A stretch of 64,000 bases of DNA from contig OY725490.1 in NCBI GenBank assembly GCA_963281255.1, forward strand, positions 4,898,001 through 4,962,000, in the 5' to 3' direction. Position 1 is the first letter of the stretch. Each line of letters begins with the position of its first letter. The notes under the pieces are model-generated. The model worked only from the letters and a program-made list of their open reading frames with translations, was not told the origin of the DNA and did no database searches. Positions 7,066-63,973 of this stretch are shown piece by piece. This DNA comes from Aphrocallistes beatrix (lineage: Eukaryota > Porifera > Hexactinellida > Sceptrulophora > Aphrocallistidae). Position numbers and translations under genes: made by a program.

Positions 7066-9473
7066 CAGGGGTGCTCAAACTTTTAAATCTACGGGCCACT
7101 TTAAAAATTAGGCTCCGCCTTACGGACCACAAATCATAGATCGCCTCTGGCTTTAGTTTAATCAATTTTCAAGCTATACTATTTGACCTCATATTGCATT
7201 AACAATGGATTCTACTTGTAAATTCAGGTTATTGACTTAAATTATAATCTTTTGAATGGATTCGAATCATTTGATGTCTCTTTTGAACTCAGCTTGTTTT
7301 CTAGCAAGTGGACAATAGTACTAAACCTAGATTTGGGGTATACTATATAATGTTCATAGTATTAGTAGTAGAATAACATTGTAGAAAAATCTACCTAAAC
7401 TACGAAATTTCGCTAATGAGAGTGATGATGTTGCTTGGATTTAACTAATAAATCAATATCTGCTTCTATATCAGTCGTTGCTAGACGAAGACACTGCTCC
7501 AAATGTGAATCAGTGATGGTTGATCTAATTGTGGATTTTGTATGCTTCATGCGGGAGAACATCTGCTCACATAAATATGTGTTTCCAAAGAGCGAAAATA
7601 TTTTTGCTGCGTGCGTTGTCAATATGGGAAAATTTTCCGCTGATACACATGTTTTATAAAATTGTAGCAGTGGCGTATCAGCGAACTTCGTTTTAATGTT
7701 CTCGTCACACTGAAGCTCAATGAGCTCCATTTGAAATTCTCCCGCTACCTCTTCCATCACATTCACAGAGAAGGGATTAGTAGCAATTTTCAGGTTACAT
7801 TCACGGGAGCGAAAATCTGGAAACCTCTCTTGGAATTCAGTCTGGAGTTGACATATCGAAGTTACATATTCTGGAGCGTATTCTGCGCATTGCAGTTTTG
7901 ACATTGCTTGAAAATGAATCAAAACCTTTTCTTGAAGCTGACTTTTGAAAAGATGTAACTTCATCTCGAACGCTTTCACGTGGTTGAAAAGGACATGGAC
8001 CAATTGATCTTTGTACTGAAGCTTCAAGTTGAGGTCATTCAAATGCGATGAAATATCAGTAAGAAAAGCGAAATCAGCAAGCCACTTTGGATCGTTGAAC
8101 TCGGGCACTGGTTTTCTTTTTTCTGTCATAAACGATTTGATAGCATCTCTTAACTCGAAAATCCTCGTTAGTACTTTTGAACGACTTAACCATCGCACAT
8201 CAGAATAATACACAACATCGCCATATTCAGCTTCCCATTCAGTTCGAAGAAAATTTTGGAACTGTCGATGGTTCAAACCTCTTGCTCGGATGAAGTTCAC
8301 AATGTCCGCGATTACCCTCATAACTTGCTCAAAGCGGAGAGATTTCGCGCACAAGTTTTCTTGATGGATTATGCAGTGGTAGCTCGTGAATCTTTCAGAG
8401 TCCACTCCTTCCTCTTCTTTCAAAAGAGCTACCACCCCGGCTTTTTTTCCAACCATACTAGGAGCTCCATCAGTCGCCACTCCAGCAAGATTTTTCAAAC
8501 TTAAGCCGTACCTAATAAGAGCCGTTTTCAACGCTTCCAGAATGTCTGTACCCCTTGTTCTTCCTTTCAAAGGGCACAATGCAAGCAGTTCTTCAAAAAT
8601 ATGGAATTTTTGATCAATTCCTCGAACGAAAACAGCTAGTTGTGCAGTGTCAGTTTGATCAGTACTTTCATCCAAAGCCAATGAGTAGAACATACATGTA
8701 TGTAATTTAGTTCTCAACGTTTCCTCGACATTCATAGCCAATTCTTCCACTCTTCTAGTGACAGTAGCTCGAGATAGAGATACATTTTTGAAATTGTCAA
8801 TATTTTTTGGGCAAACACATTCAGCTGCTGACACGAGACACTCTTTTACAAATTCTCCATCGGAAAATGGTTTTGACTTTTTGGCAATTTTTTGAGCAAT
8901 GACATAACTAGCTTTAACACAGTCATCAGCTTCCGTAGCTACTTTCTTAAAAATTGATTGCTGTGTTATTAGAGATTTCCTTAAACGATTTTGTTTGTCT
9001 GTACGTGTTTGACCTTGGAGACTAGCATACATGGCTGCATGCTTAGTATCGTAGTGTCTTTTTAAATTGTATTCCTTGATAGCAGACATTGCTTCTCCGC
9101 ATATTAAACAAACAGGCTTTCCATTACTCTCGACAAAAAATATAGATCTGTCCATTTTTCATTGAAACTGCGAGATACTTCACTGTAATCTCGTTTTCTG
9201 CTAGAACTCGCCATTTCTATTTAGGTTCTGCCTCCTAGGTTATACTTGTGAAGCTCTAATAATTGATAGAATTCGTAAATGCAACTATAGTTACCAAATA
9301 CTGTATTCATACTAGGAACATTGATGCATTTGTAGAGTATCTATATTATTTCTATACGGTGTTTAGAAAAAACAATTATTATCTGACGATTGAAGCACGT
9401 CAATCTACTGTATATATATGAATAATGAAATCAAGCGACGAATTATCCCCGGGCCACCGTTTGAGCACCCTTG
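7066..9473. mobile_element. Autonomous-type hAT transposon (2.4 kb)
   Basis: The terminal inverted repeats are CAGGGGTGCTCAAAC on the left (7066) and the inverse of GTTTGAGCACCCTTG on the right (ending 9473). A GGGCCAC motif follows subterminally at both ends. It encloses one transposase gene on the minus strand. The flanking octamers (GACTACAC and TATTAGCA) do not match, so the duplication has decayed or one end has been rearranged. Confidence 0.85.
7413..9214 (-). CDS. hAT transposase of the ZBED / GTF2IRD2 type, one frameshift near the N-terminus
   Basis: This DNA transposase would cut and paste the surrounding 2.4-kb element. The main frame is open from ATG at 9155 to the stop at 7413 (580 aa). 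It has an N-terminal BED-like C2H2 finger (CLICGEAMS...LKRHYDTKH, about residues 17-39). RNase H-fold signatures follow: LALDESTD (about residue 160), ATDGAPSMVG, the YHCIIHQE motif and a C-terminal hAT dimerisation block (FGNTYLCEQMFSRMKHTKS). A better start is ATG at 9214: that frame reads MASSSRKRDYSEV...EKWTDLYF, the usual head of this family, and joins the main frame if one base is restored in the T run at 9140-9135. Otherwise it looks intact and recently active. Related animal proteins include GTF2IRD2 and several ZBED genes. Confidence 0.92.
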
Positions 9474-12231: not shown

Positions 12232-12447
12232 GTTAGAAAGTATGTAGAAGATCCACTTGTTTATTCAGAAGGTATCAAAGCTGGACTAGCTGCCAATATG
12301 CTCAAGACGGTGGACTATGTACTTCCCCATCTCGGAGAGATAATACTACCCTGTCTAGTCTATCATGGTGCGGAGGATATTATAACATTTGTGGGAAGTT
12401 CCCATGTCTTTTTCAATGCAATTAGGAGTGAAGACAAACAAATCAAG
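12232..12447 (+). CDS. Monoacylglycerol lipase-like exon (catalytic Asp region)
   Basis: This 216-nt exon (72 codons, phase 0 at both ends) follows an acceptor TTTCTACTAG and is followed by a donor GTATGA. The translation runs VRKYVEDPLVYSEGIKAGLA... through PCLVYHGAEDIITFVGS to FFNAIRSEDKQIK. The DPLxYxxGxKxG segment and the HGAEDxxT segment match MGLL-type serine hydrolases, which hydrolyse monoacylglycerols such as 2-arachidonoylglycerol at membranes. The Asp in HGAED aligns with the catalytic Asp of the Ser-Asp-His triad. It continues directly into the exon at 36051, so the intervening intron is about 23.6 kb. The nucleophile exon (GxSxG) was not found in the window. Single-copy, well-conserved sequence and clean splice sites indicate a real host gene. 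Confidence 0.85.
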
Positions 12448-13569
12448 GTATGAAGCTATCCTACATTTTTCTCTTCATATTTATCTAATATGGAATAAAA
12501 ATGCTTTGTCTTAATCTTAGTATGTATCTTGTTTATTTTTATGTCCCACTGAAATTTCCTATTCAGAACTTTTTGATTTAATTAAAGTTCATGTTTCGAT
12601 AATTACAATACCATGATTTCAGTACTTAAAGTATTTATAAATTAGTAGTTCCAATATTTTCAATAGGAACTCTTTCAGTATATGAGATAAAATGTTGAAA
12701 TTGTAGAGTCATGAATGTATAATAATGTCACATGGGATAATACAATTATATCATATATAATTTTCGCAGTTATTAATAATCAACAATTATCGAATGAATA
12801 GAAAATTACAATATTGTAGATCATTAATTAGATACGAAAAAAAGATTTAACAGAAATCATTTAATTGAAGAAACCATATTCTTTATGGATATTAAGGTTG
12901 TTTTTTCCTTCCAGAACTAACTCATAAAGTTTTCATTATTTTCTCCTGAAGTTTTTTTGTGTAAACTGTTCTCGATGAGTTAAATTCAAAAATACTTGTA
13001 CACTTTTTTGGAGCTCATGAGGCAAGAAAGAAATCTTTAAAATAGTCACCTAATTTGTAAAGGACATTCGAGGAAACTTCAATGGTTTATGTTTATTTTA
13101 CTCAATTATTCTTGTACGAAATGGTTGAATAGATAATATAATAGGATTATAATTTTCAATTTTTACCCAATTAATTTTTTCCTGCCCATTTCGTAGCTAC
13201 AATAGAGTAAAATATCAAAAATCTGTCACTATCATTTTGTTCTATCTGCGAAGATCTTTCCAAAACCGTCGAGTCTTTTACTCTACGACCATGGTAATTG
13301 AAGATACAACAATGATTTTTTTAATTCCTAAAAACAGGCTATAGAGCAATTTTTGGAGGAAAGGCTTGATTTCCATAGTTTATCTGTATCCTAATATTAA
13401 ATAACATTCAAACGTCCTTATTCAACAACTTATAGCAGTAATTAACTGAATAACAAAAAAAAATTTCACATCATGACACCTTCAAAAGTGTGAAAAGCCA
13501 GGTTTGTGAAAAATTTCCTGTCCTTTGCTAGTCACGAGCAAACAAGAATCTTTCCAAATTTGGTTAATC
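12448..13569. other. Lipase intron, gene-free
   Basis: This is AT-rich intron sequence. The segment around 13440-13500 (TTTCACATCATGACACCTTC) matches, inverted, sequence at 46262-46290, so it is a dispersed repeat fragment. Nothing else is recognised. Confidence 0.45.
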
Positions 13570-18069: not shown

Positions 18070-19555
18070 TATATTATAATCTCTAATGAAAGAATATATG
18101 CGAAAATATATAGGTTCCTCAAACATTCATTTGTCAAAAATAAATATTTCTCGACTTATCATTGACTTGATTGTAATACAAATTCTGTGGATAACATTGA
18201 ATATATTATAAAATGCCGAATCAAATCATGAAAAATGTACCCAAATGTGGCTATTATGCTAAATAATGAATACAATTGTCGTTAATAATATATACAGAAA
18301 AAATGGAAAACTTTTGATAATTATTTTGAAAGTTTTGGCCTTGGACCTCCCATATTCGGTCAAAAATCCCGTTTAGGGTCTAAAAAGTGATATCTCTCTA
18401 TCTCTGTAAATTATGCCCAAATTCTTAGTTCTAACTTCCTAATATACTTTTTATGAGGGTATATATACGATTCTTTGATAATAATTGCACTACATCCTAT
18501 GGAATGTCAAGTTTTAGATTTTTGTCATATGATGACGTACCATTTTTCGAAAATCCAACTTGGAAACTATAGGTCGTAGACCTTCGATATAACTTCTTAA
18601 TATACTTTTTTGAAGCTCTTTATTCATTCTAAACTGATGGATTATACTTCGCAGTGCTAGGAATATGAATTATTATCTCAATTATCTCAAAATATTCGGG
18701 GTTAGGGGCCTCAAGGAAATTTTTGGATTTTCAGGGTACTTTTGCTATTTTATGTAAATATTTGGCTCGAATATTCCTAAATCAGCTGTATAAATGCGAA
18801 TAAATGTCTGTGAATGCTTTTGTTCGTTTTTAATAACTCATTTTACATTGTTCTTAACATCTAAACTTAATATCTCTATATCCCGGGACTTTAAAATTTC
18901 AAAATTCACCATCTTTACAGAATTTTAAATCAAAATTGGTTTGTGGGAGTGGTTTGAAAATTTCAAGAGTTGTTCCATATCATTAGGCGATGACTGTAGG
19001 ACCACTTTATTTTCGATATCTTATAACATGGTGATTTTTTCATGATTCCCCAAAAAAACAGACATTTTTGGCCCTTTTTTGGCCCTTTTTTTTCGGACAC
19101 CGATAAAATTTACTATTTTTGTCATTTTTGCTTTCTTTTGGTCCTATGAAGTGGTAAATATGATAGACTATCCATGACTCGATTTTGGAAGCATTTGTTT
19201 CCTTGGTATCCTAAACAATACTTTGAGTGTCTCGATTTCTACCATTAAGATGTGCTAGCGATAAAAAAAAACAGACTTTGAGACGCTGTATCTCAAAAAC
19301 TAGAAACGAGAATCAAAAACGGTTTGGAATGTGTCAGTATTTCTTGACGAAGATACCTACCACAGTGGCACGAAACCTCATTTTGGTGGTATTGACACTT
19401 TTTGTTGATTATAGGGGTTTAAGCAAGTATTATTGACCTATAGGTTATCGAACCTTTTAAATCGATTGCGATTATCAGAAATTTTGTAAGGGTTCAGATT
19501 CGCAAATTATGACGTCATCGCAGTTATGCTACAATTCCCAAATATTAGTAAAATA

Positions 19556-20010
19556 CAGGGTTGAAACCGAATAGTTGATTATTTGGTTTAACCAAATATT
19601 ATTTGCAAATAATTGATATTTGGTTTGTAACCAAATATCATTATTTGGTATTCGGTTGAGAACCAAATAATTTGGTCAACCGAATATTTGGTAAAACAAA
19701 TAATTTGCATGCTTTCCCAATATAATCACACGTTCTTACATGAGGTGGTCCGAACACAAATAAATCTAATAGGCCTACTTATACTTGATTATATTTTTGT
19801 ATAAATATATATATAATATATGAACATTTATGCAAAAATAAAATCAAGTATTATTTGGTTAACCAAATTATTTGGTTGACCAAATATTCGGTTGACCAAA
19901 TTATTCGGTTAACCAAATTATTCGGTTTGACCATTATTCGGTTAACCAAATTATTCGGTTTGACCATTATTCGGTTAAAATGGTATTTGGTTGAAGCGGT
20001 TTCAAGCTTG
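19556..20010. mobile_element. hAT miniature element built of ATTTGGTT repeats, exact 8-bp duplication (455 bp)
   Basis: The ends are CAGGGTTGAAACCG and the inverse of CGGTTTCAAGCTTG. The duplication GTAAAATA is exact at 19548-19555 and 20011-20018. Both halves are arrays of AACCAAATAATTTGGTTGAC-like units in opposite orientation, so the element can fold extensively. A related copy is at 37452. Chance ORFs through the arrays are not genes. Confidence 0.9.
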
Positions 20011-20143
20011 GTAAAATATAATATATCCAAGAAAATGAGATGTTTAATCATCTTCTGGAAAGATAATCGAATTTAGAAGTTTTTCCTGGTCACTAATATC
20101 CTCAATTAACACGCTAGCGTCTGGGACTGATTTCCTTACCCTT

Positions 20144-22949
20144 CTATTGAGTAAAAGGAGTGGGTCGCTCTTGACACAGCAACCGGGTAAAAACATCTTT
20201 AATATTATCTTCAAAGCTGAATTTACGAGATAAGCGTTCTCTTAATCGACGAATCAACTTATTACTCGCTTCAAGCCCTTCTTCCGATAATTGTTCCAGC
20301 CCTAAGCCATTATTGAAACAAGAAATTATGTCTGGTGCGTGTGCTAATACCTTGTGTAGCGTTGGTGTAATATTTGCCCAAAGAATTAGTAGATAGAGTT
20401 TCCGGCACACGAGTGCTAGTTCTTCCGTGTCTATACGACGTCCAGAGTTATACACTCTCAAGATTGCTCCAAGGTAGGTATGAATCAAAAGGATAGCTTC
20501 TTTGTAATCTGTCTTTATCGTTGAAAGTACCCAATATAAGAAATCCTTCTCACTGCTCTTTCTTTGGAATAAACAACGCCTGGCTACATTCCCAGTAGTG
20601 GAAGTTCCCCCTTGTGAAGATGCAAAATCAATCAGAATATTTAATTTTTCTCTTAGTAATCCGCAGACAAAATTTCTTGCACTTTTGACCTTCACTGAAC
20701 TCGGTGACCATGTGCAAATTCCACCATTTAGATGACCGATTAAGTCCATGAACCAACTAAAACATCTTAGATAGGCGTGCAAAGGTGAATTGGGAATTAT
20801 ATCGATATCAGATAAAGGAACATGCGTGAGATTAAAACGTTGATCGCTGGTTAGAGAGAGAAATTCTTCTTCATTGACTTCTTGGAAGAGAACCTTGGCA
20901 TCGCTGATAAGTATGTTTATTGGAAAACCATCGCTGACTAAGTCTACATCGTGAATTTGTTTGAATGTAGCAGTGCAGAACTGGCAGGATGCACCTCCAG
21001 TACCTCTAAGAATGTGGGCCATTTTACCATCTAACTGCGAACGTAAAATATCTACGGTAGCATGATGCCCATTATTTAGATCCAACCCATTTTTTTAAGA
21101 ACATCAGTTTCCGTGTTGATCATCGTTTTGATTAAAAAACTGACATTTGCTGAATTTTCTGGAAGTGCTAGTAGTGCAATAGGCTGGATCGAAAAGGGAG
21201 AATTAGGTACAGGATTTTTCCAAAGAGTTGCTATGAATATCTGAAATCGTTATCACTTTGAAACCAAACAGGAGGAAATTTTTAGTTGAAATGTCCGAAT
21301 GAGAGGTTACTTGATGATATACACGATGGGATCCAGACCCATCTAGTCCGTCAGAGATACGAACTTGTAGTGGCTGTTTAGAATAATCAATCGAGATATT
21401 CGCTAAAATTCTATTAACCGTATGAGTGAGTAATGCTGTATGGTATGCCTATGCCAACTGAATAGCCTTCTCTCTCCACAAAATGAATATCATCGACTAA
21501 ACTAATTTGATTACGATGAAGAGCTACGCTATTGTAACCTGGAAGAGTAGTGGATTCTGTCAATAATACACGCCTCAAATCAAGATATTTCGACTTGCCT
21601 ATTTCTAGAAAGTCCAACAAAAAAGCTGATGCTGTCCAGAGACAGTTTGCAATTGAGCTTCCCGAATGTTCCAGTACTGATGATCTCTTTCATCGCTTTA
21701 CTAGCAGTGCAATTGTCGTGCTCTTCCAGTGAATAAAATTTTACTAGGTAGATAGCTATTGTTTTAGGAGTAGAATCATCATGTTGAGCAACAGCTTCAA
21801 CGTGCGACCTGAGCTCAGCTAGTCGATTACGAATTGACCTATTCTGCAACTCGCTAATGTGCCTAACATGTTTTCGAATGAAATTTTCCTTGAATTCAAC
21901 TGTCGGGTGAGAAGTTTGCAATCTGTCGATGGAGAAGTCGCAGTCTGAGGATTGAGGGAATTCACTATGTAATGGATTTATGAAAGGTGTGCAAAAATGC
22001 AACTGGTTCCAGCCAAGGTTGTGTCAAACTCAATTATTTGAATTATTTTTTTGTAATATTGCATCAGATCATTTACATAAAACACACCAGATCAATCAAT
22101 TCAATCATTTGCGCTTATTCAAATCGTTCAGCTCATTCATTTTAATCATTCAATTAAATTCAAATCAATCAATTCAACTCAATTCAATTCAAATCAAATC
22201 AATTCAATTCAATTCAAATCAATTCAAATCAATTCAAATCAATTCAATTTAATTCAATTCAGATCATTTAATTCAATTCAGATACCGTAGATAATTTTTA
22301 GCCCCATTTAGCATTTAACCCCTGAAGAAAAATAAATGTTTCACAATACATATGCAAGAGAGCTTTCGATAAATATAACCGCACGAGTGAACCAAGAAAT
22401 TTAGAACCCTCTTTTTGGAGGGGGATGGTTCGAAGGCCGGTAACTATTCGAGTATATACGGTGATTACGGTCATTCAAATAAAAATCAATTCAGATAACT
22501 CGAATCAATTATAATCAGTTCAAATCAATTCAACTCAATTCAAATCAAATCAAATCAAATCAAATCAATTCAAATCAATTCAACTCAATTCAATTCAATT
22601 CAATTCAATTCAATGAAAATTCAGATCATTCAGATCATTTTATTTTATTCAATGACAACATTCAGATCAATCAACTCAATCATTTCTTATTAACCAACTC
22701 AATCAAATCAAATCAAAAAATGAAGTTTTTTTCAAATCAAATTGATTTGACTCAACCTTGGTTCCAGCTCGTTAAGTCAGATCTTTTTACATAGACTAGT
22801 CTCTCCTTCTTCATATCGGAGAATTTCCTGCGAAAATATTCCGATTTAGATTCTTCTAATCCATATTTCTGGATGAACAAGCGGGAAATATCACTAAAGG
22901 TTTTGTCAGAGTTGGAGGTGAAGAAATGATATGCATCTTCGCTGTTCAT
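20144..22949 (-). pseudogene. RAG1-like transposase (RAG1L/Transib-type core), interrupted by a 749-bp insertion and small frameshifts
   Basis: This minus-strand gene runs from ATG 22949 (MNSEDAYHFF) to the stop at 20144, about 690 codons once the insertion at 22013-22761 is discounted. In order I see an N-terminal helical region; GLSRNRQVEI followed by LPGYNSVALHRNQI, resembling the pre-catalytic region of RAG1-like proteins; VRISDGLDGSGSH (first catalytic Asp, aligning with RAG1 D600); LWKNPVPNSPFS; QLDGKMAH (aligning with D708); GGASCQFCTAT (zinc ligands aligning with C727/C730); TGNVARR; HKVLAHAPDII (aligning with H937/H942); and SEEGLEASNKLIRRLRE (aligning with E962). All these residues are retained. 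Frames change near 21600, 21415, 21240 and 21095. No RING/ZDD head, no RAG2-like kelch gene and no RSS-like terminal repeats were found. It lies in the lipase intron, opposite to that gene. Confidence 0.85.
22013..22761. mobile_element. 749-bp inverted-repeat element filled with TCAAT-type repeats, inserted in the RAG1-like gene
   Basis: The terminal inverted repeats are CCAAGGTTGTGTCAAACTCA on the left and, inverted, CCAAGGTTGAGTCAAATCAA on the right. The 6-bp duplication TTCCAG is at 22007-22012 and 22762-22767. The interior is mostly degenerate AATTC/TCAAA pentamer arrays (22120-22280, 22495-22615) flanking a unique segment of about 200 bp (22285-22485). Deleting the element plus one duplication restores an unbroken reading frame across the junction. 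The superfamily is unassigned. Confidence 0.85.
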
Positions 22950-22956
22950 CGTTATA

Positions 22957-23003
22957 CTAATTTCTAATTGCTAATCAAATTGATTAGCAATTAGAAATTA
23001 GTA
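22957..23003. repeat. Perfect 47-bp palindrome next to the RAG1-like start
   Basis: The 23-base arms ACTAATTTCTAATTGCTAAT... and their exact complement surround one central A. It begins 8 bases before the ATG of the RAG1-like gene and abuts a second palindrome. Confidence 0.85.
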
Positions 23004-23055
23004 TCCGAATTTTATTTTATGGTTGATTAAATCAACCATAAAATAAAATTCGGAT
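23004..23055. repeat. Second palindrome, adjoining the first
   Basis: The arms ATCCGAATTTTATTTTATGG... and the inverse pair completely apart from one unpaired base. It shares no spacer with the first palindrome, and the two have unrelated arm sequences. Together they form a double cruciform-capable block of 99 bp. Confidence 0.85.
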
Positions 23056-23400
23056 TTTTTATCTAATTTTTAATGGATTTAACAGCAGTCAAATTGGGAA
23101 AACATTCAAATGGTTATTAGGACAAACTCCGGTAGGGCTGGAAATTATTTTATATTTTGAACTTTGTTAACAATGTCTGTTGTAAAAGAGAAATTTAGTG
23201 CATTAAATAGGATTCGAACCACCAGGTTTTTGACGCATTTATAGTTGATTGATGAATTATTTATTTTTTCATGTTATTGGACCTCAAATTATAATTCGTC
23301 ACTTTGGATACTTGATACAAATATAAATTATAAACGAACAAACCAAATTCCTCAAAATATGACTGAAAGAAATGTTTTCCTATGTTTGTTTATTGGCATA

Positions 23401-34836: not shown

Positions 34837-35176
34837 TAATCAAATTTGGCTTGAAATAAATGTTTGAAATTTTCAAATGTTAATCCATCTGATTTTGTGA
34901 TACGGGAAAATCAAAACTTTTATTTTTAATTGGTATATAATTTATATATTTTTTCATTTCAACATTTTTCTGGGGATTTTTCCTCTTTTTAAAAATCAAA
35001 AAAATGAAATGTTAATAAAATGGAAAACAATTTTTCAAACCTTTTCTATGCAATAATATGTACAGCTTCACTTTCACAATAGAAATCATTATACTACACT
35101 ACTGTAGGCTGTCATTGTTATTAATATTTCAAAGCAATAAGTTATATATATGCCTCAATTATATTGTAGTGTATAG

Positions 35177-35604
35177 CAATGCTCAAATTATGCTCAAAAT
35201 ATGCTCAAATTATGCTCAAAATATGCTCAAATTATGCTCAAAATATGCTCAGAATATGCTCAAAATATGCTCAAGTTATGCTCAAAATATGCTCAAAAAA
35301 TGTTCAAATTTTGCTCAAAATATGTTCAAAATATGCTCAAAATATGCTCAAGTTATGCTCAAAATATGCTCAAGTTATGCTCAAAATATGCTCAAAAAAT
35401 GTTCAAATTTTGCTCAAAATATGTTCAAAATATGCTCAAAATATGCTCAAGTTATGCTCAAAATATGCTCAAGTTATGCTCAAAATATGCTCAAAAAATG
35501 TTCAAATTTTGCTCAAAATATGCTCAAAATATGCTCCAAATATGCTCAAAAAATGTTCAAATTTTGCTCCAAATATGCTCAAATTATGCTCGAAATATGC
35601 TCAC
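35177..35604. repeat. 11-bp minisatellite with a 99-bp higher-order period
   Basis: The unit is ATGCTCAAAAT with variants (AAATT, AAGTT, GTTCAAA). The marker variant GCTCAAAAAATGTTC occurs at about 35291, 35390 and 35489, spaced exactly 99 bp, i.e. nine units. Because 11 is not a multiple of 3 and the unit lacks stop codons, all three forward frames are open. The long ORFs here (MLKICSKYAQN repeats) are artefacts. Confidence 0.92.
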
Positions 35605-36050
35605 TATGACGGGAAATTAAAATGAAATAACCCAACTTTGAGGATCTCAAAAACTAGTTATGAAAATCAAAAATGGTTTGGATACGTAAAATATATCCTA
35701 ACGCAGACTTACCCACGCTTAACATCTTCGATATCTCTCTTTTTAACTTGTTTTGAAGCTCAAATCGGAAGATGTTCAGTGGGCGGTATCATTAGTCTGA
35801 ATTGTAATTTAATTCACAAAAGAATATATAATACTGTTATTTCCTTCCCAATTTAAATTTATTTGCAGCTATAACATACTTTGATGGGAGAGAGATTTTG
35901 GTGCAAATATTATGAAACATTTATTAAAATCTCAGCTTGAAATCAAAGCAATTCGCCTGTTAATTGAAGTTGTTATTAGTAATTTTATAATTTGTTGATT
36001 ATTTCCCAGCTCGTATATTTAACAATGTGTTATTTTAATTTTATATATAG

Positions 36051-36149
36051 ATATGGCCTGGTGCGAGACATGAACTACACAATGAGATAGAACCTGATCG
36101 AACTGAAATAATTATATCTTACCTATCTTTTGTACAACAGCGGATATGA
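36051..36149 (+). CDS. Monoacylglycerol lipase-like terminal exon (catalytic His)
   Basis: After the acceptor TTTTATATATAG the exon reads IWPGARHELHNEIEPDRTEI...SFVQQRI and stops with TGA at 36147-36149. It has 32 codons. The RHELHNE motif matches the catalytic-His segment of MGLL (human YHVLHKE). It joins in phase 0 to the end of the 12232-12447 exon (DKQIK then IWPG), giving an alignment without gap to the family. This is the C-terminus of the host protein. A possible AATAAA-like signal (CATAAATAAC) follows at 36151. Confidence 0.85.
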   Translation: MWPGARHELHNEIEPDRTEIIISYLSFVQQRI

Positions 36150-50666: not shown

Positions 50667-53260
50667 ATGTCCGATCCTGAATTCGAACCAGATTCTGACG
50701 AGACTGGAGCTGAGACTGGAGCAGAGACTGGAGCTGAAGCAGAGAGTTTCCTAAGATTTCAAGCTGAGGGAGGTACTACTGAGGTGACACAGATGTCTCA
50801 AGTTTCGTCCCTCGGTGAGTCCATTCCATTACATTCGGGAATTTCTCAGTGTATAGAAAATGTTGGTTTATATACTAGCAGTAGTTCTTTCAGTACTGCG
50901 ACACCAATAACTAAACGTCGCAAGTTTTTTGGGTCGAAATCGCGGAAGCGAAAAGGTAGTTTATATTCTCGTAAATACCCGAAGCGATCCCAAAAACTTG
51001 CTGACGATACCCAGTCTGAAATTTCTACCCATTCACAATCCGTACTAAATCTTGATGATTCTTTTGTTATTCCTACCGTGTTTGATTCTAGCAGGGATAC
51101 CACTACTGCAGAAGGTAAAATATCAATTTCAATACCCACCAAAAAGCCGCCTAGTAAGGTATTGACTGTGTATGACAGTGCAACATACGCTGAAAAAAAA
51201 TCAAATTGACTCCAATTTCTAGTCAGCGTATTGTTTTTGATGTTTCCGTTTTGGAATCGATGTTTGAAAATTCCTTTCAATGTAAATTTTGCCACCATGT
51301 GCCTGTAAAACTTTTTCAGTCATCTGCCCAACATTGTTTAGGAATATATATCTACCTAAGGTGTGAGTATTGCTTTACAACTAAAAATTACTGGATTGTG
51401 TCGGAGAGATTTAGTGAAAATATCCCTGTAGGTAATTTTACTGTTGCAAAGCGAAATGCTAGTTCTTATGAAGCTGTTTTAGGTGCCCGACTTGCTGGTA
51501 TCGGCAAAAGGGGCCTAGATTTTATTTTTTGCAGTGTAGGAATTGGAAGACCACTGGCATATTCAACATTTAGTCAGGTAAACCGAGATCTTTGCGTCGT
51601 ACTAGAGCATATTGCCACCGAATCCATGCAGAGGACTATTGAAGACCTTAGGTTTTCAAATGGCCTGACGCTGGATGATATAGTTCATATCACCGGCTCG
51701 TACGACGGTGCATATCAAAAGCGTTGCAGTAGGATGGGCGGAGGTTTTTCCCGCTATTGTTTTGTGTCACTAATAGAGGTAAAAACAGGTAGGGTTGTTG
51801 CATATCAAGTGGTATGCAATTCATGCCCTGAATGTACGGTATTGCGTCATCATTTTACGGGGGGAATTTTGTCAGCCGAAGAACACCGTGACAAATTTGA
51901 GTTACATTTGAACATCTGTCCCGCAAATTATAGGGATTTTTCAAGCGTATCTCTTGAGTACGAGGTTTCCCCGGAGATTATGACTCAAGGATACGAAAGG
52001 GGAGTAATTTGCGATGGCTTAGTTTGCGATGGGGATAATAAATCTTTTGAAAAATAAGAGAAGTTGACCCGTATGCATATGGATTTGAATGTCTAAGCCA
52101 TTGCGTAAAACGGATGAAGGGCCATCTTATTGAATATCAGAAAAATAAACTTAGACTGGCCAGAAGTGATAAGGCAGCCAAAGTAAAATCAGGTGTGGGT
52201 AAGGCCATAATTCAGGATGAATTTAGGGGTAAATTAGTCCGAAAAAACATTCCCAGAGGGGAATGGTCTGATTCTTCACAAAAAAATGCTGTAGAAATGA
52301 AATTCCTCACAGACATTATGTGTGCACGTATTGCATCAATGTATCAGTTGGCAGTAAAACATCATAAGGGATGTGTAGACCAAATTTTGAATTATATCCG
52401 TGCCATCCCTTATCACTATAGCGCCACTGATCAATCAGCCGCAATTGATCATAATAGGTGTCCTCTAGGTGCTGATTCTTGGTGTAAATACCAAGCAGCC
52501 GTGGCCAAAGGTGTCAATCCACCTAAACACCCAAATTACCTTGGGCCCGAAGCTGTGAAATTAGTCCTAGAGGTATTTGACCATTATAACTATGATAAGC
52601 CATTTTTTATTGATCAAATTGCTGATGGGCTAACAACAAATCACAATGAGGCCCTCCATAATGTTTTATTCACAATGGTGCCAAAAACTGAAGCCATTAG
52701 CTACACTACCATGAGGTTGGGTAGTGCCTTAGCTGTTATCAGATACAACGGGGTGACTTATCACGTGTCTTTGAGATCTTAGGTATAAAGGAGAGTGCTG
52801 CCATCAAAGATCTTTTTACAGAATTGGATGCAAAGAGGGTGAGACAGTCCCGCACGATTCATAAAATTCAAACGCAGAGATTCATGGACAGCAGAGTAGG
52901 AGCAGAAAAGATTCAAGCAAGAGGAAAAAGCACGGGGTTGGCTATCAATCAGGTAAGTTCTCTGGTTCAGCTGTGATACCCGAAGATGAAACTTTAGAGG
53001 AGCTGGAGTTCCAAGTCCCAGATATGAATCCAGAGGCTTCATGTACTATACCCCAAAAAGTCAACGTGAAGCGGGCAAGCTGTGGTGTATGCGGGGAGGA
53101 AGAAGCCGGAACCGACGATGACACCTCAGACCTACCGGAAGGTAAGTTGTCATGGGTAGAGTGTGAAGAGTGTTCTGTGTGGTACCATTTTGTATGTGTT
53201 GGTGTTGTTAACAATGATAGTTTAGGCCAATATTGGGTATGTGATAAATGTTTAAATTAG
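50667..53260 (+). pseudogene. Mutator-like transposase with C-terminal PHD finger, four frameshifts
   Basis: ATG at 50667 starts an acidic head (MSDPEFEPDSDETG, then GAET repeats) and a basic stretch (KRRKFFGSKSRKRKGS). A zinc-ligand region CKFCHHV...CEYCF follows at about 51280-51375. The DDE core then has ITGSYDGAYQKR (first Asp), CNSCPECTVL, CDGDNKSFEKI (second Asp) and TTNHNEALHNVLF (Glu), the pattern of Mutator-like transposases of the type widespread in arthropods and molluscs. The C-terminal 60 residues form a PHD finger (CGVCGEEE...CEECSVWYHFVC...WVCDKC). Frames change at about 51190 (A8 run), 52050 (A run), 52755 and 52932 (A run); nothing else is lost. Terminal repeats were not identified. 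Confidence 0.85.
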
Positions 53261-61153: not shown

Positions 61154-63973
61154 CTAATTATTTCTCGTCTCCAGACGAGTCGGGATAATTAGGCCATCCC
61201 GAATCCAGTAGTTTCCGCGGAGGTCTGCATATTCTACCTGATCTGCGCGGTATCGTGTCAATTTCCGAAGACTCGGGTACACTATATTCTGAGGGGCTTT
61301 CGGAACTTTGTTCATCGTGTCATGAAGTTTCACCTTGATAATCATTCGCTTCGGTTGTGGCCTCCGATTCGTTCTCGTTTGCCTCCGGGATCGCTAGTGA
61401 ACTTGGGATTTCTGTGCGATACCAACTTGGAGGACCCAATACCTTACATCTATTGAGATGTACCCACTTTTCTGACATTTTCCCTTCCGATCTTCCTTTC
61501 TAATACGAACGTTTGGACCTATTCTCTCTATCACGGTCAAAGGTCCTTCGAATCTCCGGTCCAGACCGCTTTTCCTAACTCGGTTATCCAGTAGTACTAG
61601 GTCCCCGGGTTTGACGTCAGAATTACCCTTGCCCTTGTCATAGGCCTCTTTCATCCTACCTCGAGATAGTCCTAAATTCTCTTTCACTTCTTCATTTAGT
61701 ACTATTTCACTGGAAGATTGGATCTCTTTCGTCCACTCGAGGGGGTCGTAACCATGGTCTTGGGTATTGATGTTCAATGTCGCAGTAGCTACAGGTTTAG
61801 GATCTACCCCATACATAACTCTGTAGGGAGTGAAACGCGTGCTTGTATTCGGGCTGGAATTCAGAATGTAGGAAACCTCCGGGAGTAGTGACGGCCAACT
61901 GTTTTTCGCTATGTTCCTCTCCTCCAATACACAACGTAACACCTGTTTTACCGACTGAATTCCTCGTTCACTTTGTCCATCTCCTGGGTGATAGGTTGAA
62001 CTGCGTCTCTTACTGATCCCATATACTGCCAAAGCTTCCCTGACTTCAGTGCTATCGACATTGGGCCCTTGATCACTAAGTACATAGCTTGGCGGGCCAT
62101 GTTTATATATCCATCCGTTCTTTATTGCGTCCACTATAGTCCCTGACTCTTGATCCGCCATCGGATATAATTCGATGAATTTCGAAAACAGGTCCACCAT
62201 AAGTAGAAAATACCTGTGGTTATTCGTAGCCCATGGGAGAGTCGCTACGTCGAACGCGACTATCTCCCTTGGTCTCGATGCTATATTGAGAGGTACCAGT
62301 TTCTCCCTAGGCGTATTTTGGGCTTGTTTCTGTGGCATGTGAGACATCCTCTACAGAATGTCTCAATGTCGGCGTCCATCCTTTTTAGTAAAACTGTTGC
62401 CGAACTAGCCGCGTCGTTTTGTCTATGCCCAAATGTCCTTCGTTGTGTACTAGAGTTAATATTTCGTTCTTCATTTCACTCGGAACAATTACTTTACGCC
62501 CACGACACAATAATCCTTCTGTCAGATTGACTCCTAATTGATTTTTGAACTGCCCTTCGGTGATACCCCCAGAAGACTTCAACTGGTTGATTGCGGATGA
62601 CGTTGCAGGATTGTGCTTTTGCCCCAGTATTAGTCTCCCTCGAATGCCAGTGACCTCTTCTCTAGTTGCGTAAACGTGCCTCTCGAAATACTTTTCGTTG
62701 TTGACCTCCCAATCTATCTCTGCTTCAACCCTAGAAAGGTAATCGGCTGGAGCATTTTCGACTCCCTTGACGTGTTCTATGCGATATTCCAAGGATTCTA
62801 ACACTTGAATCCACCTGGAAAATTTTCCACGGGGGTCTTTCTGCCTACGTAGCCAGACCAAAGGGTTGTGATCTGTAAGGAAACATAAGCTTGGAGCTGC
62901 CTGCAAGTATTTTCGGAATTTGCGGCTTGCGGCAATTACTGCCCAACATTCCAGCTCCCCTGCTGAATAATTCTTCTGGGCCGGCGTGAGTCCTGAAGAA
63001 AAGAATGCTAACGGTTTTAGTATGTATTCCCCTTCTCTCTGTGACAAAATACCCCCCACGGCTGTCGAAGACGCATCCACCTGAAGTACAAATTCACTCT
63101 CCCAATCTGGGAATGCGAGTATCACCGGGGAAGCCGTTAATTTGCTCTTAAGAGAATCAAAAGCAGACGCGGCGTTATCCTTCCATGCCCAATGTGACTT
63201 GTCCTGAGTCAACTGGTATAACGGTCCTGCGATGGCAGCGAAATTTGGAACGTATTCTCTATATAAATTTGCCAGGCCTAGGAACCTCAAGAGATCCTTC
63301 TTAGATCTGGGGGTCGCGGCATTACGAATCTTGTCAACCAGCCTGGGGCTCTGTGTGTGTCCCTCTCTTGAAACCACATGGCCCAAGAATTCTCCTTGAA
63401 GATATCCAAATGTGCACTTGTCTCGTCTGAGCTGTATTCGGGCTTTCCGAAAAGCCTTCAGCGTTCCTTCCAGGTCAGAGAGATGATGGTCGAATCCGTT
63501 GGAATGCACGCATACGTCGTCAATGTACGGGTCAGCGTGTTCTATTGGTCTTAAAGTCTCGTCCAATAACCTTTGGTAGGTGGAACCGCTGTTAACCAGG
63601 CCAAAAGGCATCCGATTAAATTCAAAGAGCCCCTTAGGTGTTGCGAAGGCTGTTTTGAATTTATCCGCCTCGTTTATTTCGACTGCCCAGTAAGCCGACG
63701 CTCATCCAGAAAAGAATAATGTGTGTCTCCATGCATTCGGTCCAATATGTCTCTTGGATTTGGCATCGGATATGAATCCACTCTCGTCGTCCTATTCAGT
63801 TCTCTGAAGTCCACGCAGAATCGCTTGGTTCCATCGCGCTTCGTGACTAAAATCACCCTACTTGCCCACGGTGAATTGGACGGTCGACATATATTGTTAT
63901 GGAGCATCTCCTCTACTTGGCGGGTTATTTCCTCCTCTACCACGGGAGCTACGGGACTCAGTCTCTGTTTCAC
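61154..63973 (-). pseudogene. Ty3/Gypsy retrotransposon pol region, frameshifted, 5' part outside window
   Basis: The order on the minus strand is reverse transcriptase (VDFRELN near 63800, YIDDV near 63530), RNase H (VLQVDASSTAVGG near 63080, LTDHNPL near 62860), an HHCC zinc-binding domain (HNEGHLG ... CRGCLTC, 62440-62350) and integrase core (FDVATLPW, LSDQGPN, HPGDGQSERG; Asp-Asp-Glu pattern, 62260-61960). A C-terminal tail to about 61154 follows. This is the usual Ty3/Gypsy order. The frame is broken near 63680 (within reverse transcriptase), near 62385 (stop plus shift before the integrase finger) and between 61394 and 61345. The element runs off the right edge, so gag, protease and the 5' LTR are not visible. 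No env-like ORF is present. The higher GC than its surroundings suggests a recent arrival. Confidence 0.9.

What the first reader, a model, noticed from the sequence alone, without database searches (positions are those of the whole stretch)
20144..22949. RAG1-like transposase with catalytic and zinc residues intact, inside a lipase intron
Seen: motifs DGLDGSGSH, LDGKM, CQFC, HKVLAHAPDII and EGLEASNK in the order and approximate spacing of the RAG1 core. Known: vertebrate RAG1 uses D600, D708 and E962, with zinc ligands C727, C730, H937 and H942. RAG1-like (RAGL/ProtoRAG) transposons are known from several invertebrate lineages and Transib is the wider superfamily. Inference: this is a RAG1L-type relative lacking the RING head, damaged only by one insertion and a few single-base shifts, so it is probably a young loss. 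It bears on how widely RAG-like transposons spread.
Basis: partly seen in the sequence, partly recalled or inferred. Interest (0 to 1): 0.9.

Follow-up and report, generated by a model that had tools for sequence, protein, structure and literature searches.

The report
Decayed RAG1-related transposon in glass sponge
A broken jumping gene in what is probably a glass-sponge genome makes an enzyme of the family that gave rise to the antibody-gene recombinase RAG1; better-preserved relatives in the same genome have ends that resemble antibody-gene recombination signals, but it has no RAG2 partner and sits on the Transib side of the family rather than being a RAG transposon.

Summary
On the minus strand lies a decayed DNA transposon whose transposase keeps every RAG1-type catalytic (D, D, E) and zinc (C, C, H, H) position. 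It runs from 19361 to about 23153: the 3' end has an RSS heptamer (CACAGTG); the 5' 474 bp are lost. It sits between two apparent exons of a monoacylglycerol-lipase-like gene. The interpretation changes. The nearest solved relative is HzTransib, not RAG1L, and an unrooted tree separates the sponge clade from an 11-row RAG1L/RAG1 clade. The four elements examined (A-D) are about 3 kb with one gene and no RAG2L. It is a Transib-clan element, most like 'Subgroup I' of Tao et al. 2022. The genome, probably a glass sponge, holds at least 135 matches; one family has five over-99%-identical full-length copies with 5-bp duplications (one displaced by a base). In 6 of 8 family representatives the ends fit a two-part, asymmetric pattern (13 bp, 4- or 13-bp spacer, 10 bp), the spacing reported for an algal RAG1L-RAG2L transposon. 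The predicted structure covers the RAG1 core, including a nonamer-binding-domain-like fold. A new member of a known kind, useful for testing whether the two-part signal predates RAG2.

The parts
19361..23153 (-). Remnant of family A transposon (3' end at 19361; 5' 474 bp of the 3005-bp element absent)
   Evidence: blastn of the L021 element against the window: 96.5% over 2023 bp plus blocks of 97.7, 96.4 and 96.0%
19361..19396 (-). 3' terminal inverted repeat: 13-bp element with heptamer CACAGTG, 13-bp spacer, 10-bp second element (division by comparison with other families)
   Evidence: the first 34 bp recur with up to 3 mismatches at 36 places in the genome (this one included), backwards control 0
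19556..20010 (.). Insert in the 3' non-coding part, ends CAGGGTTGAAACCG / CAAGCTTGAAACCG, 8-bp repeat GTAAAATA; hAT-type non-autonomous element (inferred)
20147..21094 (-). Transposase fragment (316 aa): second catalytic D, ZnC2 CQFC, ZnH2 HKVLAH, catalytic E, C-terminal domain
21206..21448 (-). Transposase fragment with first catalytic D (DGLDGSGSH)
21417..21689 (-). Transposase fragment, dimerisation/DNA-binding and pre-RNase H part (placed by eye)
21583..22023 (-). Transposase fragment with nonamer-binding-domain-like region
   Evidence: residues 105-171 of relative P0077 align to RAG1 NBD 3gna
22014..22760 (.). TCAAT-rich insert interrupting the coding region, ends CAAGGTTG / CAACCTTG, 8-bp repeat GTTCCAGC; hAT-type non-autonomous element (inferred)
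22761..22949 (-). N-terminal transposase fragment (MNSEDAYHFF..., read by eye)
   Evidence: 97.7% to L021
12232..12450 (+). Exon of Hydrolase_4 / monoacylglycerol-lipase-like host gene
   Evidence: PF12146, 3.3e-13; GT follows
36051..36146 (+). Probable last exon of the same gene (GARHELHNEI...)
   Evidence: motif recalled

Best explanation
The sequence is a dead copy of a single-gene cut-and-paste DNA transposon of the RAG1/Transib superfamily. It belongs to a sponge clade on the Transib side, most like the Subgroup I Transibs of Tao et al. 2022. A RAG1-core transposase binds the two ends: the nonamer-binding-like domain is expected to read the inner 10-bp element, and the catalytic core the CACAGTG heptamer. 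It nicks at the heptamer, makes hairpins on the flanking DNA and inserts the excised element with a 5-bp stagger. The copy in the window can no longer do this. Shown: protein homology, conserved catalytic and zinc residues, predicted core fold, heptamer ends, 5-bp duplications, asymmetric two-part ends over the set of families, near-identical dispersed copies of a sister family. Inferred: nick-hairpin chemistry, NBD contact with the inner element, and activity.
Against: The window copy has lost its 5' end, so its own duplication cannot be tested. L021, the only family A copy among the 20 loci with the whole frame open, has Q for an otherwise invariant zinc-ligand His, so family A may be extinct as an autonomous element here. 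Ends of families other than A and B come from a scan that asked for CACNNTG and scored the duplication, so they are partly chosen for what they show. At the fixed 4/13 positions D scores 4 of 10 and H 1 of 10; taken one by one, the top-scoring offset is 9 in 4 of 8 (B, C, E, F). PF12940 does not match family C at E 1 or less and is under its cut-off for B. Grouping with P0150, P0154 and P0060 has 85-87% bootstrap; P0067 falls outside. AU tests do not reject sponge+HzTransib (p 0.217) or sponge+RAG1L (p 0.064). HzTransib is a long branch in both trees. No bacterial or named Subgroup I sequence could be fetched.
Confidence: 0.88

Rival explanations
1. RAG1L-type element that lost RAG2L: the first reader's reading, a RAGL/ProtoRAG relative lacking the RING head.
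For: 20 of 42 sponge-like proteins with a readable C-terminus carry the Cx2Cx3GHxnC tail motif of invertebrate RAG1L (the pattern also allowed E or N for G); the stretch between ZnC2 and the conserved His is long, as in RAG1L; NBD-like fold; sponge+RAG1L not rejected (AU p 0.064).
Against: RAG1L/RAG1 form their own clade at 100/100 in both trees (11 rows; 8 rows). Sequence is nearer HzTransib. Elements A-D have one gene. Precomputed Pfam shows PF26100 or nothing on the listed sponge hits, but PF26100 with up to five more models (PF26024, 26025, 26101, 26104, 26105; not looked up) on most RAG1L hits. Tao et al. 2022 (main text read) report the tail and the ZnB region in Subgroup I Transibs, and an NBD equivalent in both subgroups.
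Confidence: 0.08
2. Domesticated host gene rather than a transposon.
For: Catalytic and zinc codons survive in a damaged copy.
Against: Broken frames, an insert in the coding part and a terminal repeat in the window; dispersed copies with terminal repeats and 5-bp duplications.
Confidence: 0.02
3. Chance motifs or another DDE superfamily (P element, hAT).
Confidence: 0.01

Closest known systems
Subgroup I Transib transposons (Tao et al. 2022, PMC9435367)
   Same: Single RAG1-core gene; CTT1-type zinc-knuckle tail in part of the families; [quoted passage not shown] NBD-like domain; asymmetric terminal repeats; 5-bp duplications.
   Different: Separate sponge clade; family A and several relatives lack the CTT1 tail; named Subgroup I sequences could not be compared directly.
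HzTransib (Subgroup II Transib, PDB 6pqn/6pqx)
   Same: Best solved match by sequence and fold; same catalytic and zinc positions; single gene (recalled).
   Different: About 22-28% identical; its solved chains align only from model residue 179 on, so show no NBD counterpart, although Tao et al. report an NBD equivalent in Subgroup II too; much shorter stretch between ZnC2 and the conserved His.
ProtoRAG / RAGL transposons, including AanRAGL of Aureococcus
   Same: Core fold, heptamer ends, 5-bp duplications, tail motif (some families), 4/13-bp spacing as stated for AanRAGL.
   Different: No RAG2L in elements A-D, no ZDD/RING head found, outside the RAG1L clade.
Vertebrate RAG1 with 12/23 RSS
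   Same: CACAGTG heptamer on 13 of 16 ends of the 8 family representatives (ends of six families found by a CACNNTG scan); two-part asymmetric signal; NBD-like fold.
   Different: Spacer 4/13 by the 13+10 definition rather than 12/23; inner element is not the RSS nonamer; mobile element without RAG2.

Membership tests
Transib superfamily | RAG1-core DDE transposase with ZnC2/ZnH2 | tested here: met
Transib superfamily | Single-gene element | tested here: met
   Elements A, B and C hold one ORF of 727-761 aa, next longest 123 aa; D has the same gene split by a frame shift, next longest 114 aa. Families E-H not examined
Transib superfamily | 5-bp target duplications | tested here: met
   Family representatives (chosen partly on this): 5/5 in 5 of 8, 4/5 in 2, none in 1. 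Family B: 4 of 5 flush, 1 displaced. Short A copies, 13 of 36 places fetched, 9 with both ends: 3 exact, 3 with one mismatch, 3 exact but displaced 2 nt; mispaired flanks 0 of 90 exact, 1 of 90 at 4/5. The window copy cannot be tested
Transib superfamily | CAC-heptamer terminal repeats | tested here: met
   Families A and B, ends found by comparing copies; six more by a scan that required CACNNTG; 13 of 16 ends CACAGTG
Transib Subgroup I (Tao et al. 2022) | Asymmetric terminal repeats | tested here: met
   Common offset 9 bp, 0 of 1000 shuffles as good; at 4/13 six of 8 representatives score 6-10 of 10, D 4, H 1 (H fits 4/15 by eye)
Transib Subgroup I (Tao et al. 2022) | CTT1 tail (Cx2Cx3GHx4C) | tested here: inconclusive
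   A Cx2Cx3[GEN]H tail in 20 of 42 sponge-like proteins, exact x4 form in P0080 and P0088, x5 form in families B, C and D; absent in family A
Transib Subgroup I (Tao et al. [quoted passage not shown]
   66 residues from ZnC2 to the conserved His in P0077 against 31 in HzTransib by chain numbering; individual helices not matched
Transib Subgroup I (Tao et al. 2022) | Groups with Subgroup I in a tree | tested here: inconclusive
   Groups with P0150, P0154 and P0060 at 85-87%; these are Subgroup-I-like by features, not by name; P0067 falls elsewhere
RAGL / ProtoRAG (RAG1L) | Inside the RAG1L/RAG1 clade | tested here: not met
   RAG1L/RAG1 rows alone form a 100/100 group
RAGL / ProtoRAG (RAG1L) | Linked RAG2L gene | tested here: not met
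   Absent from elements A-D; no Kelch_1 match within 356 kb of a found transposase match. The genome-wide PF03089 search was empty but its control rang nowhere
RAGL / ProtoRAG (RAG1L) | N-terminal ZDD/RING | tested here: not met
   No such Pfam match at E 1 or less in the 4 full-length ORFs
Functional transposon | Excision and integration | not testable with these tools
   needs experiment

The most novel reading that the evidence does not exclude
Sponge elements keep the state that preceded RAG2. A lone RAG1-core transposase with an NBD uses two-part, length-asymmetric, CACAGTG-headed ends with the same 4/13 spacing as a RAG1L-RAG2L transposon in an alga. The two-part asymmetric recombination signal and its reader would then be older than the RAG1-RAG2 partnership. 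One sponge lineage lost the CTT1 tail and kept spreading, in parallel to vertebrate RAG1.
Probability: 0.35. Interest if true: 0.8.

Novelty: new member of a known kind. Interest (0 to 1): 0.52.

Why it matters
RAG's origin is usually told as Transib plus RAG2L, but the elements nearest RAG1L are thinly sampled. Here is a diverse set, with over-99%-identical full-length copies in one family, from what is probably a glass sponge. Five-bp duplications, CACAGTG heptamers and a measurable asymmetry let one ask directly whether a RAG2-free transposase reads a two-part signal and obeys a length rule. In the held library no paper held both Transib and 'glass sponge', or RAG1 and Hexactinellida. Searches of Transib with RAG1, transposon and sponge (12 papers), with Porifera, RAG1 and repeats (54 papers holding 3 of 4 terms, 25 listed) and with Amphimedon (5 papers) were seen as listings, apart from the papers named in the report. 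In the main texts of the Oopsacas and Aphrocallistes genome papers the word Transib does not occur (passages; supplements not searched); the first reports 15.44% DNA transposons.

Tried and rejected
Lipase serine motif (GxSxG) search in the window: only hits judged unrelated; the lipase was found through a Pfam match instead. Genome-wide RAG2 (PF03089): empty, but no positive control rang, so not used as proof. Bacterial Transibs as outgroup: two scans of genome contigs (12 and 20 pattern matches) and one of viral contigs (53), none confirmed, so the trees are unrooted.

Family ends: 13 loci searched. L022, L024 and L040 gave no pair. L038's best pair (7.9 kb apart, duplication 2 of 5) was rejected. 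L026 is another B copy. Eight representatives were kept. The right end of H and both ends of D are less sure; G has no duplication.

A MAFFT global alignment of the window copy misplaced the stretch before element position about 800 because of the insert; only later gaps were used.

Tree rows: one search used 30; one search used 22, leaving out P0067, P0073, P0077, P0090, P0170, P0175, P0196 and the window fragment. P0071 was never used. The tree program warned of long branches (HzTransib, P0073, P0067) and of the odd make-up of the amphioxus row.

Kelch distances used match starts, one or a few per cluster, typed. The host name is not proven: every listed hit with an organism name is Oopsacas minuta, but transposons can move between hosts, and no host gene was tested against a database. 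Papers: main text of PMC9435367 read (figures not seen); passages of PMC7204232, PMC8355894, PMC4411706, PMC10280926 and PMC10282587.

Full report
Observation. Minus-strand frames between 20144 and 22949 hold DGLDGSGSH, LDGKM, CQFC, HKVLAHAPD and SEEGLEASNK in RAG1-core order; the codons are located. The 316-aa fragment matches HzTransib (2.7e-13) and amphioxus RAG1L (6.7e-4) in the PDB and Pfam RAG1 at 21.9 bits, under its cut-off of 25. It has 135 matches in the window's own 100.5-Mb genome, 126 of 235 candidates being scored.

Extent and damage. A copy on another contig (L021; 95% identical in the C-terminal fragment) has an open frame of 727 aa inside a 3005-bp element bounded by CACAATGG and CCACTGTG with a TAGCC duplication. 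Against it the window copy spans 19361 to about 23153, keeps the 3' end and lacks the first 474 bp. It carries inserts at 22014-22760 and 19556-20010, each between 8-bp repeats, a small palindrome near 22979-23029, and five frame-shifting indels of 1-2 nt in the coding part after the first insert. All catalytic and zinc codons survive. L021 itself has Q for the second His of ZnH2, invariant in the 21- and 11-row alignments.

Setting. A Hydrolase_4 exon on the + strand at 12232-12450 is followed by a GT, and a probable last exon lies at 36051-36146 after an AG. The element lies in this interval of about 23.6 kb of a monoacylglycerol-lipase-like gene; other exons between were not excluded.

What kind. 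Every listed database hit with an organism name is from the glass sponge Oopsacas minuta (73 hits; 120 of 151 listed). A maximum-likelihood tree of 30 rows puts 13 sponge-group rows together (100/100; six of them without an organism name) and 11 RAG1L/RAG1 rows together (100/100), with HzTransib and the Subgroup-I-like proteins on the sponge side of that branch. A 22-row tree repeats this; AU p is 0.064 for sponge+RAG1L and 0.217 for sponge+HzTransib, so neither is rejected. Trees are unrooted and HzTransib is a long branch. Sequence similarity favours HzTransib over RAG1L for families A and B. PF12940 is over its cut-off for L021 and P0077, under it for B, and not matched by C.

Ends. The ends of A and B were found by comparing copies. 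A scan of 13 loci for CACNNTG pairs gave 8 family representatives; its CAC ends, and partly its duplications, are therefore selected for. 13 of 16 ends are CACAGTG. Sliding left ends against right ends, the best common offset is 9 bp (54 of 80 identities), reached by 0 of 1000 shuffles (mean 34, maximum 43). Read as 13 bp, spacer, 10 bp, at 4/13 six families score 6-10 of 10 (A 6, G 7, F 7, E 8, C 9, B 10), D 4 and H 1; H fits 4/15 by eye. Taken singly, the top offset is 9 in B, C, E and F. The short spacer is on the 5' side of the gene in the six. Tao et al. give 13 bp, 4/13 spacer, 10 bp for AanRAGL, a RAG1L-RAG2L transposon; I could not see their Subgroup I end figure, so this spacing may already be known for Subgroup I.

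Mobility. Family B has five copies with both ends, 3412-3425 bp; four are 99.3-99.8% identical to L028, and three of the five have the whole 734-aa frame (L028, L029, L030). Four have flush 5-bp duplications (CAAAT, GAAAA, TAATT, CCATT); in L029 the duplication is displaced by one base. The B 5' end occurs at 13 places and the A 3' end at 36, backwards controls 0. Of 13 A copies fetched out of these 36, 9 have both ends, 1121-1135 bp apart: 3 exact duplications, 3 with one mismatch, 3 exact but displaced by 2 bases. Mispaired flanks gave 0 of 90 exact matches at any allowed offset and 1 of 90 with 4 of 5 flush, so the displaced duplications are unlikely to be chance. They suggest that 1-2 flank bases sometimes travel with, or are added at, an end.

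RAG2. No second gene lies inside elements A-D. No Kelch_1 match lies nearer than 356 kb to a found transposase match on its contig. The genome-wide RAG2 profile found nothing, but without a working control.

Verdict. A Transib-clan element, Subgroup-I-like, from a probable glass sponge; the window copy is dead. The superfamily and residue claims stand, the RAG1L label does not. What merits follow-up is the use, by a lone transposase, of two-part, RSS-headed, length-asymmetric ends.

Noticed in passing
L029, L042, L043, L051: Exact 5-bp target duplications displaced by 1-2 nt from one terminus (4 of 10 copies compared; 0 of 90 mispaired controls).
   Followed up: partly
L032:2753-3884: Short family A element inserted inside a family B copy with 5 bp missing relative to L028 instead of a duplication.
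   Followed up: partly
window 7413-9158 -: 581-aa open frame of a hAT-like transposase with a Spin-doc zinc finger (PF18658; PF14291 and PF05699 under their cut-offs).
   Followed up: no
window 51194-53260 +: Mutator-like transposase (PF20700) followed by a frame with a cysteine-rich, PHD-like tail (tail judged by eye).
   Followed up: no
window 61394-63701 -: LTR-retrotransposon pol-like frames (by eye); integrase core PF00665 in 61397-62350.
   Followed up: no
window 35019-35625 +: Three overlapping long frames made of a short repeat (AQNMLKICSKY...), a satellite-like array.
   Followed up: no
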